Positions 3,892-22,005 of a stretch of 63,029 bases of DNA are shown piece by piece. The notes below the pieces were generated by a model that saw only the letters and a list, made by a program, of their open reading frames with translations, did not search any database and had not been told where the DNA came from. The translations under genes and the position numbers were made by a program. The stretch lies in contig JAUNHC010000033.1 in NCBI GenBank assembly GCA_030524175.1, positions 1 to 63,029 of the forward strand. The letters run 5' to 3'. Position 1 is the first letter of the stretch. Each line of letters opens with the position of its first letter. This DNA comes from Eubacteriales bacterium (GTDB taxonomy: Bacteria > Bacillota > Clostridia > Lachnospirales > Lachnospiraceae).

Positions 3892-4248
3892 ATGGCAAGA
3901 ATTAAAGGCGGCTTAAACGCAAAAAAAAGACATAACCGTACATTAAAATTGGCAAAGGGCTACAGAGGAGCCCGTTCCAAACAGTATAGAGTAGCAAAAC
4001 AGTCTGTAATGAGAGCACTTTCCAGCTCCTATGCCGGAAGAAAGCAGAAAAAACGTCAGTTCAGACAGCTTTGGATCGCACGTATCAACGCTGCAGCAAG
4101 AATGAATGGCTTGTCCTACAGCAAACTGATGCATGGCCTGAAGGTAGCTAATGTTGATATCAACAGAAAGATGCTGGCAGAACTTGCAGTTAACGATGCA
4201 GAGGGATTTGCAGCACTGGCTGAGGTTGCTAAGAAGGCAGTTGCTTAA
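3892..4248 (+). CDS. rplT: 50S ribosomal protein L20
   Basis: A 118-residue protein that binds 23S rRNA early in 50S assembly. The basic N-terminal extension ([14 protein letters not shown]) and the globular C-terminal half with [11 protein letters not shown] and L-S-Y-S-K-L-M are diagnostic. In Bacillota L20 is also the repressor of this operon through the leader RNA seen upstream. It is the last gene before a strong terminator. Confidence 0.97.
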
Positions 4249-4535: not shown

Positions 4536-5693
4536 ATGAGGAATTGGAAAAAAGCACTGAGTGTAACCGCAGCTATGGCAATGGCAGTATCTGCATTAGC
4601 AGCACCTGTATCTGTAAATGCAGCTGACGAGGTATTTAAGATCGGTGGTATCGGACCAACCACAGGAGGGGCTGCTATTTACGGCCAGGCTGTTAAGAAT
4701 GCAACTGAGCTTGCCATCAATGAAGTGAACGAAGCCGGCGGAATCAACGGATATCAGGCTGAGTTTAATTACCAGGACGATGAGAATGATGCAGAGAAAT
4801 CTGTAAATGCTTATAATACACTGAAAGACTGGGATATGGATATCCTGGTTGGTACTGTAACTTCCACTCCCTGTGTGGCAGTAGGAAATGAGACAGCTGC
4901 TGACAATATGTTCCAGCTCACACCTTCAGGCTCTGCTGTAGAGTGTGTTGTTAATCCTAACGTGTTCCGTGTCTGCTTCTCTGATCCTAACCAGGGTCTT
5001 GCTTCTGCACAGTACATAGGAGAGCACAAACTTGCTTCTAAGGTAGCAGTTATCTATGACAGCTCTGATGTATATTCTTCCGGAATTTATCAGAAGTTTG
5101 CAGAAGAAGCCGGAAACCAGGGGATTGAGATTGTTGCTGCAGAAGCTTTTACCGCTGACAATAAAGCAGACTTCTCCGTACAGCTTCAGAAAGCAAAAGA
5201 CGGCGGAGCAGAGTTGATCTTCCTTCCGATCTACTACACCGAGGCTTCTCTGATCCTTGCCCAGGCTAACAGCATGGGAATGGATATCCAGTTCTTCGGA
5301 TGTGACGGTATGGATGGTATTCTGAATGTTGAGAACTTTGATACTTCTCTTGCTGAAGGTCTTATGCTTCTGACACCGTTTGCAGCAGATGCAGAGGATG
5401 AGAAGACACAGAATTTCGTTAAAGCATATGAAGAAGCATATGGTGATACTCCTAACCAGTTCGCAGCAGATGCCTACGATGCTGTTTATGCAATCAAGGC
5501 TGCAGCAGAAAAAGCTGATGTGAAGGCTGATATGGAAGTTTCTGATATGTGTGAAGCTCTTAAGACAGCTATGACTGAGATCACTCTTGATGGTATCACC
5601 GGTGAGGGAATCACCTGGACAGCAGACGGCGAGCCTTCCAAAGCTCCTAAGGCTGTTATGATCCAGGATGGTGCTTACACTGCAATGGAATAA
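4536..5693 (+). CDS. livJ: Branched-chain amino acid ABC transporter, substrate-binding protein
   Basis: A 385-residue extracellular binding protein of the Peripla_BP_6 / leucine-binding family that would capture Leu, Ile or Val (related amino acids or amides are possible). The family start is visible as F-K-I-G-G-I-G-P-T-T-G after a signal peptide of about 29 residues ending N-A-A-D. The signal peptide has no cysteine, so there is no lipobox, which is unusual for a Gram-positive binding protein. It is first in the liv operon, with an AAGGAGGAG ribosome site. A GC-rich hairpin separates it from livH, which would favour its expression over the membrane subunits. Confidence 0.93.
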   Translation: MRNWKKALSVTAAMAMAVSALAAPVSVNAADEVFKIGGIGPTTGGAAIYGQAVKNATELAINEVNEAGGINGYQAEFNYQDDENDAEKSVNAYNTLKDWDMDILVGTVTSTPCVAVGNETAADNMFQLTPSGSAVECVVNPNVFRVCFSDPNQGLASAQYIGEHKLASKVAVIYDSSDVYSSGIYQKFAEEAGNQGIEIVAAEAFTADNKADFSVQLQKAKDGGAELIFLPIYYTEASLILAQANSMGMDIQFFGCDGMDGILNVENFDTSLAEGLMLLTPFAADAEDEKTQNFVKAYEEAYGDTPNQFAADAYDAVYAIKAAAEKADVKADMEVSDMCEALKTAMTEITLDGITGEGITWTADGEPSKAPKAVMIQDGAYTAME

Positions 5694-14845: not shown

Positions 14846-15526
14846 ATGGAACAATCCTATTGCCTTTTGACAGTTGACGATGAATCGGACATCCAGCGCA
14901 CAAACAGGAAATATCTGGAAGCCCAGGGCTATAAGGTTGACACTGCTGTCTGTGCTGAGGAGGCTTTGGATATGCTCCGGCAGAATCGTTACGACTGCAT
15001 TCTGCTGGATGTGCTTATGCCGGATATGGATGGTTTCGCTTTATGTCAGGCTGTGCGTGCCCTTACATCGGCTCCGATCCTGTTTCTGAGCTGTATGGAC
15101 GATGAGGAGGATAAGGTGAAGGGATTGATGGCAGGCGGAGACGACTATATTACGAAGCCGTACAGCCTGAAGGAACTTTCAGCCCGTGTCTATGCCCAGG
15201 TAAGAAGAAGTATGATGAAACGGTTTGTCATTGACCATGACCAGCAGCTTCTCACTGTTGACGGCCGGGTGATATCCCTGCCTCAGAAGGAGTTCGAACT
15301 ATTCCTTTATCTCTTGGGGAATCCAGGCCGGGTGCTGACAACCAAGGAATTATACAGTGAGGTTTGGAATCCGGGAAAGGTGGATATGACCAATACTGTG
15401 GCAGTACATATTGCCAGGCTGCGGCGCAGGCTTGAAGGGACAGAGGAAATTGTAGGCAGGATTGAGACAGTACGGGGGGAGGGCTACCGGTTTTTTCCGG
15501 GAACTGAAGTGAGGATAAAATTATGA
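14846..15526 (+). CDS. OmpR-family response regulator
   Basis: A 226-residue two-component regulator. The receiver domain (1-115) has the acidic pair in T-V-D-D-E, the phosphorylation site D55 in L-L-D-V-L-M-P-D and the lysine in Y-I-T-K-P-Y. The C-terminal winged helix (about 130-222) shows L-P-Q-K-E-F-E-L-F-L-Y-L and T-V-R-G-E-G-Y-R-F. It overlaps the kinase gene by four bases (ATGA), so the two are co-translated. Targets are unknown; repeated sites point to its own operon and the BspA-like gene. Confidence 0.93.
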   Translation: MEQSYCLLTVDDESDIQRTNRKYLEAQGYKVDTAVCAEEALDMLRQNRYDCILLDVLMPDMDGFALCQAVRALTSAPILFLSCMDDEEDKVKGLMAGGDDYITKPYSLKELSARVYAQVRRSMMKRFVIDHDQQLLTVDGRVISLPQKEFELFLYLLGNPGRVLTTKELYSEVWNPGKVDMTNTVAVHIARLRRRLEGTEEIVGRIETVRGEGYRFFPGTEVRIKL

Positions 15527-17493
15527 AGCGATTCTGGGTGATATTTGCACTGATACTCTCCTTGTGCCTTGCCGTATTTTTTACTGCGTCCAGGCCTTAT
15601 GTATCAGAAGGGCCCCGGGCGGAAAACGGTGTCATAGATTTCAGCGGAACGGATTTCTCAGCTTCCGTATATGCACTTCAGGGACAGTGGGAGTTTTATT
15701 ACAGTAAGCTGTATACTCCGGAGGATTTGGAGAAAGGTATTTCTGATGACAGGGAGATGATCGAGCTTCCCGGCCCCTGGACGAAAAAAGGGTATCCGGG
15801 TCTTGGATATGCCACCTACCGCCTTACTGTGCGCACCGGTGACGAGAAGGCTCTTCTTCTGTATATTCCGGAAATCATGTCTTCCTCAGTGGTATGGGTG
15901 AACGGTGATGAAATATTCAGGGCCGGAAGTGTGGGAACATCTGCTGGTGAGACTACACCGGGGGTGCGCAATGATCTGTTGTCTGTGGTGCCTGAGGATG
16001 GGACTCTTGAACTGGTTATTCAGTCAGCTAATTATCATATGAATGGAAGCGGGCTGTTTTATTCTGTGATTATTGGCAGGGATACGGTACTGACGCATTG
16101 TTTTATGTGGCAGAGAATTGCGGTGGCAGCGGCATTGGGAGGTATTCTGCTCATGGGTGCTTATCATTTGTTCCTGTATTTTTTCCGCCGCAGAGAACGA
16201 ATGTATCTTACCTTCAGTCTTATCTGTCTGACAACGGTACTTCGTCTGGGAATGGAGAGCAATTCCCTTTACCAGTATTTCATGCCCCGGGGCATCGGGC
16301 CGGTGATGAACAGGGTATTTCTGGAGTTGTTTGTATTTCACAGCCTTTGTATCTGCATTTTTATGCTGCAGGCGTTTTCTATCCGGCTGGGCCGGGTTTT
16401 GCGGGTAATCTATTCAGCAGCGTTTATACTGCCTGTAATAGGGATTTGCTTATTGCCATATGCTTCGGCAGTAAACTGTATGTTTGTGGTAATGATTCCT
16501 TATGTCATATCTGTGGTGCTGGTACTGCGCTCCGGAAAAATAGGGAAGGACCCGTATAAGCTTTTATACTTGTGCGGACTTATTACCTTCCTGCTTTATG
16601 GTCCCCTTACGAAGACGGTTTTTGAGGGCGCGCTCTTTGTTCCAGCAGTCGTTCCTAACCTATTTCTGATCTTAACACAGTGTGTCATGCTTTCCCGTAA
16701 TTATGCGGAGGCTCACAATGAGGTGGAGAGGATAAACGCAAACCTTGAACTTCTGGTGGAACAGCGCACCGCGGAACTGAACCGGGCCAACCAGTATCTG
16801 GCCTCTTCCCAGGCAGCCCTACGGGAAATGATTGCAAATATTTCACATGATTTAAAAACTCCTTTGACTGTGCTGAATAATTATCTGGAGATTTTGGGAG
16901 ACGAAAGCATTGTGACTGATGACCGGGAACGGGCAGAATACCTGGGAATAGCCTATCACAAGAATCTGGATTTACAACGGCTTATCCATAATCTTTTTGA
17001 AATTACCCGGATGGAAGGGGGAACCCTTGTGTACCGTAAGGAGTGGCTCAATGCCGGGCAGCTCATGGAGGAGGCAGAATGTAAATATGGAGAGCAGGTC
17101 CGTAACAGCGGACTGGAGTTTTATGCAGAAGCAGATGACGGGGTGGAACTGGAGGCTGACAGTAATAGAATTTGGAGTGTACTGGATAATCTTGTGTATA
17201 ATGCCATACGTCACACGCCGGAGGGCGGCAGTATTGCAGTCAGTATACAGAGAGACGGGGAAAAGGCTGTATTAAGTGTGAAAGATACCGGCACAGGCAT
17301 TGCCGCAGAGCACTTGTCTCACATCTTTGAACGATTTTATAAGGTTTCAAAGGAGAGAGGACAAAAGGACGGCTCCAGCGGACTGGGGCTGTATATTGTA
17401 CGTACAGCAACAGAGGCTATGGGAGGCACTGTCACAGTTAAAAGCGAGCCGGGAAAAGGTTCAGAGTTTATTCTGACATTTTCTGCAAGATAA
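15523..17493 (+). CDS. Sensor histidine kinase with extracellular 7TM-DISM sensor
   Basis: A 656-residue membrane kinase. After an N-terminal membrane segment (about 5-22) comes an extracellular beta-sandwich (about 30-190, with L-Q-G-Q-W-E-F-Y-Y and L-P-G-P-W) of the galactose-binding-like kind that precedes 7TMR-DISM modules. Seven membrane spans follow (about 195-400), then a coiled coil (400-435), a HisKA domain with H442 in S-H-D-L-K-T-P-L-T, and an ATPase domain with D-N-L-V-Y-N-A-I-R, D-T-G-T-G-I and G-L-G-L-Y-I. 7TM-DISM domains are thought to bind carbohydrates or other small ligands; the ligand here is unknown. Confidence 0.9.
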   Translation: MKRFWVIFALILSLCLAVFFTASRPYVSEGPRAENGVIDFSGTDFSASVYALQGQWEFYYSKLYTPEDLEKGISDDREMIELPGPWTKKGYPGLGYATYRLTVRTGDEKALLLYIPEIMSSSVVWVNGDEIFRAGSVGTSAGETTPGVRNDLLSVVPEDGTLELVIQSANYHMNGSGLFYSVIIGRDTVLTHCFMWQRIAVAAALGGILLMGAYHLFLYFFRRRERMYLTFSLICLTTVLRLGMESNSLYQYFMPRGIGPVMNRVFLELFVFHSLCICIFMLQAFSIRLGRVLRVIYSAAFILPVIGICLLPYASAVNCMFVVMIPYVISVVLVLRSGKIGKDPYKLLYLCGLITFLLYGPLTKTVFEGALFVPAVVPNLFLILTQCVMLSRNYAEAHNEVERINANLELLVEQRTAELNRANQYLASSQAALREMIANISHDLKTPLTVLNNYLEILGDESIVTDDRERAEYLGIAYHKNLDLQRLIHNLFEITRMEGGTLVYRKEWLNAGQLMEEAECKYGEQVRNSGLEFYAEADDGVELEADSNRIWSVLDNLVYNAIRHTPEGGSIAVSIQRDGEKAVLSVKDTGTGIAAEHLSHIFERFYKVSKERGQKDGSSGLGLYIVRTATEAMGGTVTVKSEPGKGSEFILTFSAR

Positions 17494-17546
17494 GAATGAA
17501 AAATGTATGAACCGGACAGGTACTTAACTAATAAAAACAGGTATGG

Positions 17547-17580
17547 AAATGCGAACACGTGTAATCATGTGTTCGCATTT
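17547..17580 (+). terminator. Terminator after the 7TM-DISM kinase gene
   Basis: AAATGCGAACAC and GTGTTCGCATTT form a perfect 12-bp stem with a 10-base loop, 54 bases after the stop. The T-tract is short (ATTTCC), but the A-rich/T-rich ends fit a factor-independent terminator. Confidence 0.7.
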
Positions 17581-17590
17581 CCTGCTTTCA

Positions 17591-17622: not shown

Positions 17623-17668
17623 GTCAAAATGATTTGGTAAATAAAAAACATAAAAGGAGAAGTACAGA

Positions 17669-17989
17669 ATGAGAATTAAAAGAAAGGTTTTATCAGCAAT
17701 ATTGTGTCTATGCCTATGCCTGATGCCGCTTGAAGGTGTTTTGCCGGTGTATGCATACAATGAGGACGATGTATTTACAGACAGGGAGACACCGGAGACA
17801 GATTCGTATTTTGATCATGATGATGTACAGACTGCGGACGACTATGCAGAAGCAGAAATGTTTAGTTCAGAACAAGTTTTTGAAGACGGAACCGAAATAT
17901 TAACAGAAGAAAACGATTCTGGAGATTTGATGACAGCATCCGATGACTCGGGATATGTTTTTGAGGGGGGGGGTATTAACTGTCAGTAG
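17669..17989 (+). CDS. BspA-like protein, N-terminal piece before the G9 tract
   Basis: A 106-residue product with a signal peptide (about residues 1-29, ending V-Y-A-Y) and a Glu/Asp-rich spacer. It starts at ATG 17669 behind AGGAGAA. In the sequenced state it stops shortly after the G-run with an out-of-frame tail (G-G-G-I-N-C-Q). With eight or eleven Gs it would continue into the leucine-rich repeats. On its own it would be a short secreted peptide with no recognisable function. Confidence 0.7.
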   Translation: MRIKRKVLSAILCLCLCLMPLEGVLPVYAYNEDDVFTDRETPETDSYFDHDDVQTADDYAEAEMFSSEQVFEDGTEILTEENDSGDLMTASDDSGYVFEGGGINCQ

Positions 17990-19742
17990 TGACAGTGGAA
18001 CAACTGCCTGGAGATATGATAAGCAAATAGGTAAGGACGAGGTACGCAGAGTAATACTGGAAAATGGTGTAAAAAATATAGAGAATTCAGCATTTTATAA
18101 CTGTATTAATCTGGAAAGTGTTGACTTTTCCGGCTGTACTGATCTGGAAACCATAGATGATCAGGTATTCCGGGGATGCGGAAAATTAAAAAGTATCGAC
18201 TTATCTGCCTGCAAGAAATTAAACCGGATTGGGAAAATTGTGTTTTGGGAATGCAGTGAACTGGAAAGTGTAAACTTGTCAGGGTGCAGCCGTCTGCAGA
18301 TAATTGACAATAACGCATTTTATAAATGTACACAATTGAACTCAATCAATTTTTCCGGCTGCAGTGGATTGGAGACAATTAAAAATTTGGTGTTTTGGTA
18401 TTGCAGTAGCCTGACCAGTATTGATCTATCTGACTGTACCAATTTAGAAGCCATTGGTAATCAGACTTTCAGAGAATGCAGTGAACTGGCAAGCATCGAT
18501 TTATCCGACTGCAGTAAGCTGGATTCTATTGACGACCAGGCGTTCGCCCAATGTATTAAGTTAAAAGAACTTCGGTTAGGTGGCAATTCAGCCCCGTCAT
18601 CCTTGGGCGGGCACCTTTTTAGAGGGGTACCAGGAGGTTTTCATGTTCATGTACCCGAGAATGCTAGCGGATATAATGCGTCAGACTGGTCACCTGGCAC
18701 ACTTGTGTATGGTTCTGTTGATTTGAATTCTTCTAAGGTTGATATTGTTTTTTTGGACAGCCAGAACAATTCTGTTACAGATGCAGAGTATGGAGAGGTT
18801 ATCACTTTTCGGGCAAATGTGCGGGATGAATTACAGAATACGCCGGCTTCGGATGGAAGTGTGACTTTTAAGGCAGGGACTGCCTTGTCGGATACGAAAC
18901 AAATAGTACAAGGAAGTGCTGTCAGTAAACCTGTTACACTTACGGGAGACTCCTGGAAACCAGGGGATTATACCATTCGGGCAGAGTACAGCGGTGGAAC
19001 AGGGTTACTGCCTAATGATACAGCAAACAAGCTTCTTACCATAAAAAGAGCAGGGCGTACAATCTCCCTGTCGGATTCAGTGTCAGTGAATGAGACGGAT
19101 GTGACATTGAACAATGCAGTACTTTCTGAAGGGAAAAATGACGGGACGGTTCAATATGGCTATAGCTTGGACAAGGACAGCCAAGCAGTGAAAAACTGGC
19201 AGAACAGTCCTGTATTTACCGGCCTGGAATCAGGAAAAACCTATTACTTTTTTGCTTCCGTATCAGAAGGCACCTATTACGGAAAAGCAGTTTCTTCAGG
19301 AGTGGAAGTGACAATACCAATATATGAGGGGATATGGGTGAACAACGTAAATCTGCTCCGTGATCAGGACCATACAATAGCATGCGGCAATGGAACTGCG
19401 TCTTTTAATCCGGATACGAATATTCTGACGCTGGAAAATGCTACAATTGATAAATTTTATAATAACTTTATTGGAGGAGTCTATCCCTATCCGTACATAT
19501 GGCTGGATACCACAATGGATTGTACTGTTGAGCTGAAAGGAGTAAATCATATTGGCAAAACAGGTGATCCTTCACGGGAAGGGATTATGGCTAAGTGCAA
19601 CCTGACAATAACAGGAACGGGAAGTCTGGAAATAGAGGCGGCAGGAAAGACCTTCGAGAATCGTTTTTATGGTATCCATACTGTGAATTCCCATATTAAC
19701 ATACAGGATACTGTTATTACAATGAAAAATGAAATTATATGA
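17943..19742 (+). CDS. BspA-like protein, leucine-rich repeat and Ig-like piece
   Basis: An open frame of up to 599 residues. Residues about 30-215 hold at least six repeats of the pattern I-x-x-x-A-F-x-x-C-x-x-L-x-S-I-D-L-S-G-C, the BspA/LRR_5 type found in surface proteins of gut and oral bacteria, some of which bind host matrix. An Ig-like segment with V-T-F-K-A-G-T-A-L and a W-V-N-N-V-N-L-L carbohydrate-binding-like domain follow. The first ATG (17943) has no ribosome site and lies before the G-run, so this piece is probably not translated separately. Confidence 0.65.
   Translation: MTRDMFLRGGVLTVSSDSGTTAWRYDKQIGKDEVRRVILENGVKNIENSAFYNCINLESVDFSGCTDLETIDDQVFRGCGKLKSIDLSACKKLNRIGKIVFWECSELESVNLSGCSRLQIIDNNAFYKCTQLNSINFSGCSGLETIKNLVFWYCSSLTSIDLSDCTNLEAIGNQTFRECSELASIDLSDCSKLDSIDDQAFAQCIKLKELRLGGNSAPSSLGGHLFRGVPGGFHVHVPENASGYNASDWSPGTLVYGSVDLNSSKVDIVFLDSQNNSVTDAEYGEVITFRANVRDELQNTPASDGSVTFKAGTALSDTKQIVQGSAVSKPVTLTGDSWKPGDYTIRAEYSGGTGLLPNDTANKLLTIKRAGRTISLSDSVSVNETDVTLNNAVLSEGKNDGTVQYGYSLDKDSQAVKNWQNSPVFTGLESGKTYYFFASVSEGTYYGKAVSSGVEVTIPIYEGIWVNNVNLLRDQDHTIACGNGTASFNPDTNILTLENATIDKFYNNFIGGVYPYPYIWLDTTMDCTVELKGVNHIGKTGDPSREGIMAKCNLTITGTGSLEIEAAGKTFENRFYGIHTVNSHINIQDTVITMKNEII
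17965..17973 (+). repeat. Homopolymeric G9 tract inside the BspA-like gene
   Basis: Nine consecutive Gs about 100 codons into the gene. Nine Gs put the signal peptide out of frame with the rest; eight or eleven restore a continuous frame. Long G-runs inside surface protein genes are classic slipped-strand phase-variation switches. Confidence 0.85.
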
Positions 19743-22005
19743 GAGTGATTTAAAGTATGAACCGCAGGTTACAGAGGAGTGGTTTATGCCAATCAATGGA
19801 ATAAACTCTGTTTTGCTTGACGGAGCACACATAGAAGCTCTTTTGGGTCCGAATGATGAACATAACGTTATTTGCAGTACAGGGGAATTGAATATCAGGA
19901 ACGGTTGTGATATTAATGTCGAAAGTGGTTATGAACCATTACTTGGTAAAGCCGGTATTAATATTGAGGACAGCAGAATACATGCTGTTTCAACTTGTAG
20001 CAGTGCTATCTTTTCAGAAGAAGGGCCACTGACTATCAGTGGAGATGCAGAAGTAATAGCTAAGGGTTATTATCGTGGTTTACAGTCCAACGGCGATATA
20101 ACGATCAGCGGCGGTGAAATATACGCAGAAAGCAGCGATGAAACAAGTATCTGGTCAGTGGAGGCTCTGGAAATCAGTGGAACTCCAAAGATAACAACCA
20201 AGGGTTACTATCGTGGTTTACAATCAAATGGCAATATGACCATCAGCGGCGGTGAAATATATTCGGAAAGCAGCGATGAAACAAGTATCTGGTCAAGGGG
20301 GACGCTGACAATTAGCGGGACTCCAGAGATAACAACCAAGGGCTATTACAGTGGTCTGCAATCGAATGGCGATATGACGATCAGCGGTGGTAAAATTGAC
20401 GCGGTAAGTAGCGATGACATAGGTCTTTGGTCAAGGGCATTGTTGAGTATTACCGGAGGTGAGATTCATGCCAAGGCAGGAAACGGGAATGCGGCCATTG
20501 CTGCCAGAAATGACAGAACAGCATCGGAGGATGCAGGATTGCACATCTATGTGGATGGATTAATGGAGAAAAATGACGCAAAAACCGCTTTTTCTGACTG
20601 GTTTAATGTTAGCAACGGAGATACGAGAAACTGGTCTGCCTTCATCCCACGGGATGCCGAGAAGCTGGAGGTAAAGGACGGTGCAATGCAGAACGCTTCG
20701 GATGAAGTGTGGCTTGCGGCAGGCTGTACGGTGACCTTTGATGTAAATGGAGGCACAGGGACAAACACAACGGTTAAAGTGTTCCCGGGAGAAAAAGTTA
20801 CCCCTCCTGCGTCCCTCACCAGGCCCGGATACTATCTGGCTGGCTGGACCACAGACAACGGTTCCTATTTTAATCCCGCAATCCAGCCTGTGAGCCGGGA
20901 TATGACACTGTATGCAAAGTGGGCTGTAGTTTCCAATACTTCCTACTATACTATTACAGCAAGTGCAGGGGAACATGGCACCATTACACCTTCCGGCAGT
21001 ATATCGGTAAGAGAGTACACAGACCAGACCTTTACCTTCACACCGGAGGAAGGATATGAGACGGCAGAGGTGCTGGTGGACGGCAAGAAGGTTGAGACGG
21101 GAGATTTTTATAAGTTTGAGAGAGTGACTGCAGGACATACCATATCGGTTTCTTTCTTAAAGAAAGTACCCGAGGATTACCCCGACGGAACTGTGGCCAA
21201 GCCGGACGGGAGTTTTGTGACACCGGACGAGGTGGTCATCCTTCCGGACGGTACCGTCATCCTGAACGACAAGGATGAGACCGAATTGAAGCCGGACAGC
21301 GATGGCAATGTGGCTGTGATCAACAAGGACGGGACAGTGACTGTGCAGGACGGCTCTGTGAGAAACCCGGACGGTACCTATGTGCGCCCGGCAAAACCGG
21401 AGATCAAGACTATTCAGGTAAGGGGGAACAGAGTGGATATCTCCTTGAATGAAAGGACAGCCGGGGCGGCCGGATATGATTATGTTATCAGCCCGAACCC
21501 CAACTGCATCAAAGACAAGGATTACACCCGGGTAAACAAAAATGTGCTCCTCACAAACACGTCCATGTTTTACGTGCAGCAGGATACCTACTATGCTTAC
21601 TGCCATTCCTGGCTGCGAGGCAGTGACGGGAAGAAGGTGTTCAGCCAGTGGTCAAAGGCTTATGAGTTTACAGTTTCCGACTATACACCGGAAGCTCCTG
21701 CAGTCATCAGCACTGCCAATCCGAAAAAAGGCGTAGTTGTTGTGACCGTATCTGTACCGGAGGGGGCAAAGGGCTTTGACGTGATCCTTGGCAGAAGTGT
21801 CAAAAAGGTAAACGGTGAGAAACGTCCGGTGGATTACGGTACTGATGTACAGAAAAACAGGAACAGTACCCTTAAGACAGTGACCTTCCGCAATGTAAAA
21901 CCGGGGACAGTGTACGCTGCCCTTCATTCTTACACCAGGGCCCAGGAGACAAATAGCAAGGTGTTCAGTCCCTGGTCAACAAGCAAAAAGATTATTGTGA
22001 AATAG
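19729..22005 (+). CDS. BspA-like protein, beta-helix and C-terminal piece
   Basis: An open frame of up to 758 residues. It continues the same carbohydrate-binding-like domain that is cut off at 19742, then has three 46-residue repeats starting K-G-Y-Y, a Listeria-Bacteroides repeat near residues 340-395, a Y-T-I-T-A-S-A-G-E-H-G-T-I domain, P-D-G-rich spacers and two fibronectin-like domains ending S-K-K-I-I-V-K. The first ATG has no ribosome site, and the domain is split across the boundary. It is therefore the C-terminal part of the same gene, not a separate protein. Confidence 0.65.
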   Translation: MKLYESDLKYEPQVTEEWFMPINGINSVLLDGAHIEALLGPNDEHNVICSTGELNIRNGCDINVESGYEPLLGKAGINIEDSRIHAVSTCSSAIFSEEGPLTISGDAEVIAKGYYRGLQSNGDITISGGEIYAESSDETSIWSVEALEISGTPKITTKGYYRGLQSNGNMTISGGEIYSESSDETSIWSRGTLTISGTPEITTKGYYSGLQSNGDMTISGGKIDAVSSDDIGLWSRALLSITGGEIHAKAGNGNAAIAARNDRTASEDAGLHIYVDGLMEKNDAKTAFSDWFNVSNGDTRNWSAFIPRDAEKLEVKDGAMQNASDEVWLAAGCTVTFDVNGGTGTNTTVKVFPGEKVTPPASLTRPGYYLAGWTTDNGSYFNPAIQPVSRDMTLYAKWAVVSNTSYYTITASAGEHGTITPSGSISVREYTDQTFTFTPEEGYETAEVLVDGKKVETGDFYKFERVTAGHTISVSFLKKVPEDYPDGTVAKPDGSFVTPDEVVILPDGTVILNDKDETELKPDSDGNVAVINKDGTVTVQDGSVRNPDGTYVRPAKPEIKTIQVRGNRVDISLNERTAGAAGYDYVISPNPNCIKDKDYTRVNKNVLLTNTSMFYVQQDTYYAYCHSWLRGSDGKKVFSQWSKAYEFTVSDYTPEAPAVISTANPKKGVVVVTVSVPEGAKGFDVILGRSVKKVNGEKRPVDYGTDVQKNRNSTLKTVTFRNVKPGTVYAALHSYTRAQETNSKVFSPWSTSKKIIVK
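20062..20475 (+). repeat. 138-bp tandem repeats (three copies) in the BspA-like gene
   Basis: Units begin at 20062, 20200 and 20338, exactly 138 bp (46 codons) apart, each opening with K-G-Y-Y and containing L-Q-S-N-G and I-S-G-G. The first two copies are nearly identical at DNA level and the third has diverged more. Such repeats form rungs of a beta-helix and can change number by recombination. Confidence 0.85.

What the first reader, a model, noticed from the sequence alone, without database searches (positions are those of the whole stretch)
17669..19742. G9 tract that could switch a BspA-like surface protein on and off
The sequence shows nine Gs at 17965-17973 between the signal peptide and the leucine-rich repeats. 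Counting frames, nine Gs end translation at 17989, while eight or eleven join the signal peptide to the repeats. Slipped-strand mispairing at G-runs in surface protein genes is an established phase-variation mechanism. That this cell is in the OFF state is inference; a sequencing error of one G would look the same.
Basis: partly seen in the sequence, partly recalled or inferred. Interest (0 to 1): 0.75.

Follow-up and report, generated by a model that had tools for sequence, protein, structure and literature searches.

The report
Poly-G switch before a broken surface gene
A run of nine Gs sits between the export signal and the body of a surface-protein gene, as a similar run does in three other genes of the same genome, which fits an on/off switch made by copying slips; but this particular gene is also broken further down, so here the switch probably no longer controls a full protein.

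Summary
The G9 at 17965-17973 is real and the frame count is right: signal-peptide ORF 17669-17989 and LRR ORF 17943-19742 lie in different frames. One G9 in this window is within chance, but genome-wide run lengths are G6 506, G7 23, G8 5, then G9 6, G10 6, G11 3: 15 runs of nine or more against 1.4 or fewer expected. Four secreted-protein genes share the layout signal peptide, G9-11, long body out of frame. One has an ortholog with G10 instead of G11 at the same place and a body under purifying selection (dN/dS 0.076). Slippage phase variation is the best reading of the class; slippage itself was not observed. Against the reading: the G053 ortholog of the closest paralog has no tract. Unexplained: long G runs in this genus are followed by TA in 119 of 245 cases.

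The parts
14846..15526 (+). OmpR-type response regulator gene upstream
   Evidence: Pfam Response_reg 1.5e-27, Trans_reg_C 6.1e-22
15523..17493 (+). Histidine kinase gene with 7TMR-DISM sensor, directly upstream of the surface gene
   Evidence: Pfam HATPase_c 2.5e-29, HisKA 9.3e-14, 7TMR-DISM_7TM 7.7e-14
17545..17582 (.). Perfect inverted repeat with 14-bp arms (17545-17558 and 17569-17582) between kinase gene and surface gene
   Evidence: read from the sequence; function not tested
17655..17660 (+). Ribosome-binding-site-like AGGAGA
   Evidence: read from the sequence
17669..17989 (+). ORF 1, 106 aa: signal-peptide-like start and acidic linker; runs through the G tract and ends 16 bases after it
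   Evidence: signal peptide judged by eye; no Pfam match at 0.01
17965..17973 (+). G9 tract, followed by TA
17943..19742 (+). ORF 2, 599 aa: BspA-type LRR, an Ig-like stretch and the start of a repeat region; different frame from ORF 1
   Evidence: Pfam LRR_5 3.4e-37; Big_3_5 3.2e-8, just under its curated cut-off
19728..19742 (+). Second frame break: net loss of about 221 bp relative to paralog C55
   Evidence: tblastn pieces and DNA alignment to C55 and G053
19729..22005 (+). ORF 3, 758 aa: rest of the same protein in a third frame
   Evidence: 75.6% aa identity to C55 and 62.5% to G053; Pfam Cthe_2159 8.1e-13, Flg_new 8.9e-12
21394..22002 (+). C-terminal module shared by 18 proteins of the genome
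   Evidence: 21 matches in G000 at E 1e-6, which I merged to 18 proteins

Best explanation
The G9 tract is one of fifteen long (9-11) poly-G tracts in this assembly that look like contingency tracts. In four secreted-protein genes, this one included, the tract lies soon after the signal peptide. Replication slippage changes its length by one or two bases and so decides whether translation that starts at the signal peptide enters the body frame or stops within a few codons. As assembled, all four are out of frame. The window gene has in addition lost about 221 bp further down, so it is most likely a member whose body began to decay, perhaps while switched off; switching would at best give a truncated secreted LRR protein. 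Shown: tract, frames, the shared layout, genome-wide excess, conserved tract with another length in one sister gene, the downstream loss. Inferred: slippage itself, reversible switching, surface exposure, decay during an off period.
For: Run-length plateau at 9-11 (expectation 0.24 to 1.4 against 15 observed). Same layout in C46 (window), C47, C55 and C71. C71 and its G053 ortholog: G11 against G10 at the same point after a signal peptide identical in 27 of 28 residues, body dN/dS 0.076 over the 1337 codons compared, so the body is under selection although out of frame with the signal peptide in both assemblies. Other tracts split a LytTR response regulator (C9) and a 7TMR histidine kinase (C118). 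In G053 two tracts lie inside open frames (L060, L062), as expected if some loci are in the on state. A pilin leader carries G10 in G000 and G11 in G053. Deletion: ORF 2 matches C55 up to position 5022 and ORF 3 from 5239.
Against: No reads and no second strain, so no length variation was seen for the window tract. The G053 ortholog of C55 has no tract and one uninterrupted frame. Of 18 proteins with the shared C-terminal module, 3 have a tract of eight or more after the signal peptide (positions; the N-terminus of one, C80, may be cut by the contig end). Seven tracts (1 of 15 in G000: C86; 6 of 28 fetched in G053) lie within 6 codons of the end of a long frame, where length would only change the tail. 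dN/dS between the C46 pieces and C55 (0.31-0.37) shows past constraint but cannot tell whether the window copy still works.
Confidence: 0.7

Rival explanations
1. The window gene is a plain pseudogene: the G9 frame break and the 221-bp loss are two ordinary inactivating changes, and the tract is not a working switch in this copy.
For: Two separate frame breaks in one gene; no tract in the G053 ortholog of the closest paralog.
Against: ORFs 2 and 3 are otherwise open over 599 and 758 codons; the same layout recurs in three more genes; long G runs are in strong excess genome-wide.
Confidence: 0.25
2. The frame breaks at the tracts are assembly or sequencing errors of one or two Gs; the genes are in frame in the cell.
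For: Homopolymers are error-prone (recalled); in the six genes of G000 where a tract lies between two recognisable parts of one gene, the parts are out of frame in six of six.
Against: Long tracts recur at the same place in a second species, two G053 tracts lie in open frames, and the 221-bp loss is no homopolymer error. Error and real length mixture look alike in a consensus.
Confidence: 0.15
3. Transcriptional slippage or ribosomal frameshifting at the G run makes a fixed share of full-length product from an out-of-frame gene, without any DNA switching.
For: Long G runs can be slippery for polymerases (recalled); the C71 body stays under selection although out of frame in both assemblies.
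Against: Tract length differs between orthologs (G11, G10), and the intergenic and leader tracts cannot work by reading frame.
Confidence: 0.1

Closest known systems
Bifidobacterium breve UCC2003 sortase pilus genes bbr_0113 and bbr_1889 (PMC9187656; abstract and passages seen)
   Same: Signal peptide and body of a surface protein in two ORFs separated by a G11 or G10 tract; length shown to vary within cultures and to shift in mice.
   Different: Pilin precursors with a sortase motif; here LRR and repeat-domain proteins of an unnamed genus. No LPxTG in ORF 2, ORF 3 or the C55 and C47 bodies, and a second break in the window copy.
BspA-like proteins of Candidatus Mycoplasma girerdii (PMC5476646; passages seen)
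   Same: BspA-like surface genes predicted to go on and off by repeat-length changes; eight such genes affected in one population.
   Different: Dinucleotide repeats rather than poly-G, and a mycoplasma.
Neisseria meningitidis porA promoter poly-G (PMC3639595; start of abstract in a search listing only)
   Same: Poly-G length controls a surface protein; one G053 tract (L044) lies between TTGCCG and TATAAT with 18-bp spacing (read by eye).
   Different: Transcriptional switch; the window tract is inside the coding sequence.

Membership tests
Poly-G contingency (phase-variable) gene | Long mononucleotide tract inside the gene, above chance | tested here: met
   G9; not above chance in the window alone, but runs of 9-11 in strong excess genome-wide
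Poly-G contingency (phase-variable) gene | Tract length decides which frame follows the start | tested here: met
   ORF 1 and ORF 2 in different frames across the tract
Poly-G contingency (phase-variable) gene | Coding part beyond the tract is intact, so that switching restores a product | tested here: not met
   Not met for the window gene: second break near 19733. The bodies of C47, C55 and C71 are open
Poly-G contingency (phase-variable) gene | Tract length varies within a population or between strains | not testable with these tools
   No reads, one held genome per species; sister gene C71 is G11 here and G10 in G053
Poly-G contingency (phase-variable) gene | Tract conserved in orthologs | tested here: inconclusive
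   No true ortholog of the window gene found; its Ig-to-repeat part matches 2 of 64 genus genomes, own included, at E 1e-10. G053 ortholog of C55 lacks the tract; the C71 and pilin pairs keep one
BspA-like LRR protein | BspA-type leucine-rich repeats | tested here: met
   LRR_5 3.4e-37
BspA-like LRR protein | Secreted or surface-located | tested here: inconclusive
   Signal peptide by eye only; no anchor domain among Pfam matches and no LPxTG

The most novel reading that the evidence does not exclude
This genus runs a poly-G switching repertoire whose tracts are born and kept in a preferred sequence context, Gn followed by TA, pointing to a particular slippage-prone replication or repair context, or to selection on that context, rather than to tracts arising at random. 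It would switch exported adhesin-like proteins, sensor kinases, polysaccharide enzymes and type IV pilin together.
Probability: 0.25. Interest if true: 0.7.

Novelty: new member of a known kind. Interest (0 to 1): 0.48.

Why it matters
Slippage switches are best known from Gram-negative pathogens (recalled), and have been measured in bifidobacteria (PMC9187656, passages). A whole repertoire in another genus, covering exported LRR and repeat proteins, kinases, polysaccharide genes and pilin, would mean that single isolates or consensus assemblies misstate which surface proteins a population makes, and that gene callers split these genes in two. The TA context gives a concrete handle on how such tracts arise.

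Tried and rejected
Chance as explanation of the tract: not excluded by the window alone, made very unlikely by genome-wide run lengths.

The TA after long tracts as a promoter -10 box in general: rejected, because the sixth position shows no T preference in 59 tracts (C 17, T 16, A 13, G 13); single intergenic tracts may still be promoter spacers.

Paralog N-termini from the loci: the loci were too short. I instead compared frame-opening positions with run positions.

Ortholog search in genome contigs gave one distant locus only. Rfam found nothing in the window at gathering scores. Papers: I saw no title or abstract joining slippage phase variation with this kind of genus in the listings. Most of these listings were capped (one search showed 15 of 4,575) and the genus is unnamed, so this is weak.

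ORF 3 as a separate gene: rejected as main reading, because it is collinear with the body of C55 and G053 and I saw by eye no ribosome-binding site before its ATG.

Changed after re-checking the calls: 16 of 42 (not 47) tracts picked from seven other genomes; phylum mirror control 36 (not 37); added the end-of-frame tracts and the two in-frame G053 tracts.

Full report
Observation. The window holds nine Gs at 17965-17973. An ORF with a signal-peptide-like start (17669-17989, 106 aa) enters the tract and ends 16 bases beyond it; a 599-aa ORF with BspA-type leucine-rich repeats (17943-19742, LRR_5 E 3.4e-37) is open on the far side in another frame. The signal peptide is judged by eye.

Is it more than chance? 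In this window alone it is not: 69 of 100 shuffles have at least as many G8 matches and 40.5% of 200 first-order Markov sequences have a run of nine or more. The whole assembly (5,951,962 bases, 119 contigs, 90.7% complete) tells more. Exact run lengths are G6 506, G7 23, G8 5, G9 6, G10 6, G11 3 (arithmetic checked). The declines from G7 to G8 and from G6 to G7 predict 1.4 and 0.24 runs of nine or more; 15 are there (Poisson 3e-11 or less). Long G runs are rare in this genome except for a separate class of 9-11.

Where the tracts lie. I fetched all 20 runs of eight or more. In four genes the tract comes soon after a signal peptide and the long body is in another frame: window C46 (G9, 599-aa ORF), C47 (G9, 1176 aa), C55 (G10, 1571 aa) and C71 (G11, 2952-aa frame). 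G8 splits a LytTR response regulator in C9, and G10 splits a 7TMR-DISM histidine kinase in C118. A G9 ends an acyltransferase frame in C79, and a G10 and a G9 lie near the ends of cytidylyltransferase and GGDEF genes. G11 lies just before the start of a MerR gene and G10 in the leader of a type IV pilin gene. The rest are intergenic or unclear. In the six genes where a tract lies between two recognisable parts of one gene, the parts are out of frame in six of six. In G053, two of 28 fetched tracts lie inside open frames, one of them a glycosyltransferase gene.

Not every tract fits an early switch. Seven (C86 among 15 in G000; six of 28 fetched in G053) lie within 6 codons of the end of a long frame, where a length change would alter only the tail.

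Conservation. Among 64 held genus genomes, only G053 besides the own genome has a match to the Ig-to-repeat part of the window protein (E 1e-10) or to the first 700 aa of the C71 body (E 1e-60); the LRR part alone matches many (58 of 98 genomes). The C71 gene and its G053 ortholog share signal peptide (27 of 28 residues) and tract position, with G11 and G10; the bodies are 85% identical over the 1337 codons compared, with dN/dS 0.076, although out of frame in both. The pilin leader has G10 in G000 and G11 in G053, as one arm of an inverted repeat (by eye). Against this, the G053 ortholog of C55 has no tract and one uninterrupted frame. G053 has 32 runs of nine or more; of the 28 I fetched, several lie in or at the end of glycosyltransferase and other sugar genes, and one splits a GHKL kinase.

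The second break. The window protein continues in a third frame, 19729-22005. C55 and the G053 protein are open through this point. ORF 2 matches C55 to position 5022 and ORF 3 from 5239, which with the overlap in the window gives a net loss of about 221 bp, not a multiple of three. The tract therefore cannot by itself control a full-length product in this copy. ORFs 2 and 3 are otherwise open and differ from C55 with dN/dS 0.31-0.37, so the loss is probably recent.

Surroundings. Upstream lie an OmpR-type regulator and a 7TMR-DISM kinase. The C118 locus has a kinase, a regulator and a protein with the same C-terminal module in one direction, and there the tract is in the kinase. The C-terminal module occurs in 18 proteins of the genome by my merging of 21 matches; in 3 of 18 (C46, C47, C55) a tract of eight or more follows the signal peptide (the N-terminus in C80 may be cut by the contig end).

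Mechanism. Slipped-strand change of tract length, deciding between early stop and the body frame, is the best-supported reading for C47, C55 and C71 and for the origin of the layout in the window gene. For the window gene I take a member with its switch still present and its body damaged. Slippage itself was not observed.

Known kinds. The nearest is the Bifidobacterium breve pilus switch, where secretion signal and body lie in two ORFs separated by G10 or G11 with measured variation (PMC9187656, abstract and passages). BspA-like genes switched by dinucleotide repeats are known from Candidatus Mycoplasma girerdii (PMC5476646, passages). So this is a new member of a known kind.

An unexplained pattern. 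Of 59 tracts of nine or more that I fetched (15 of 15 in G000, 28 of 32 in G053, and 16 of 42 in seven other genomes, these all G10 or G11), 27 are followed by TA (8, 10 and 9), against 103 of 1612 runs of G4-6 in the same loci (Fisher 5e-16). In the 64 genus genomes it is 119 of 245 run ends (sums), while the mirror pattern AT before the run occurs 16 times (my sum of the control columns). In a phylum sample without the own genome (148 genomes) the counts are 57 and 36 (my sums), so the bias is strong in this genus and weak elsewhere. I have no explanation.

Noticed in passing
window 17974-17975, and long G tracts across the genus: Runs of nine or more G are followed by TA in 119 of 245 cases in 64 genus genomes, mirror control 16; 27 of 59 against 103 of 1612 for G4-6 runs. 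Unexplained.
   Followed up: partly
L026 4039-4048 (G000 C22) and L065 3976-3986 (G053 C27): Type IV pilin genes with G10 or G11 in the leader, forming one arm of an inverted repeat kept in both species (by eye).
   Followed up: partly
L040 (G000 C118), tract at 4075-4084: 7TMR-DISM histidine kinase split by G10, next to a regulator and a protein with the same C-terminal module as the window gene.
   Followed up: partly
L024 (G000 C9), tract at 4053-4060: LytTR response regulator split by G8 in its receiver domain.
   Followed up: no
L038 (G000 C86) and G053 loci L045, L048, L051, L056, L061: Seven tracts end a long frame within 6 codons, so length would change only the protein tail or what follows.
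   Followed up: no
L044 (G053 C1): G11 lies between TTGCCG and TATAAT with 18-bp spacing, a porA-like promoter arrangement (by eye).
   Followed up: no
window 21446-21929: 484 bases identical to paralog C55, while the earlier part of ORF 3 is only 57% identical in protein; suggests gene conversion or recent exchange.
   Followed up: partly
window 17545-17582: Perfect inverted repeat with 14-bp arms between kinase gene and surface gene.
   Followed up: no
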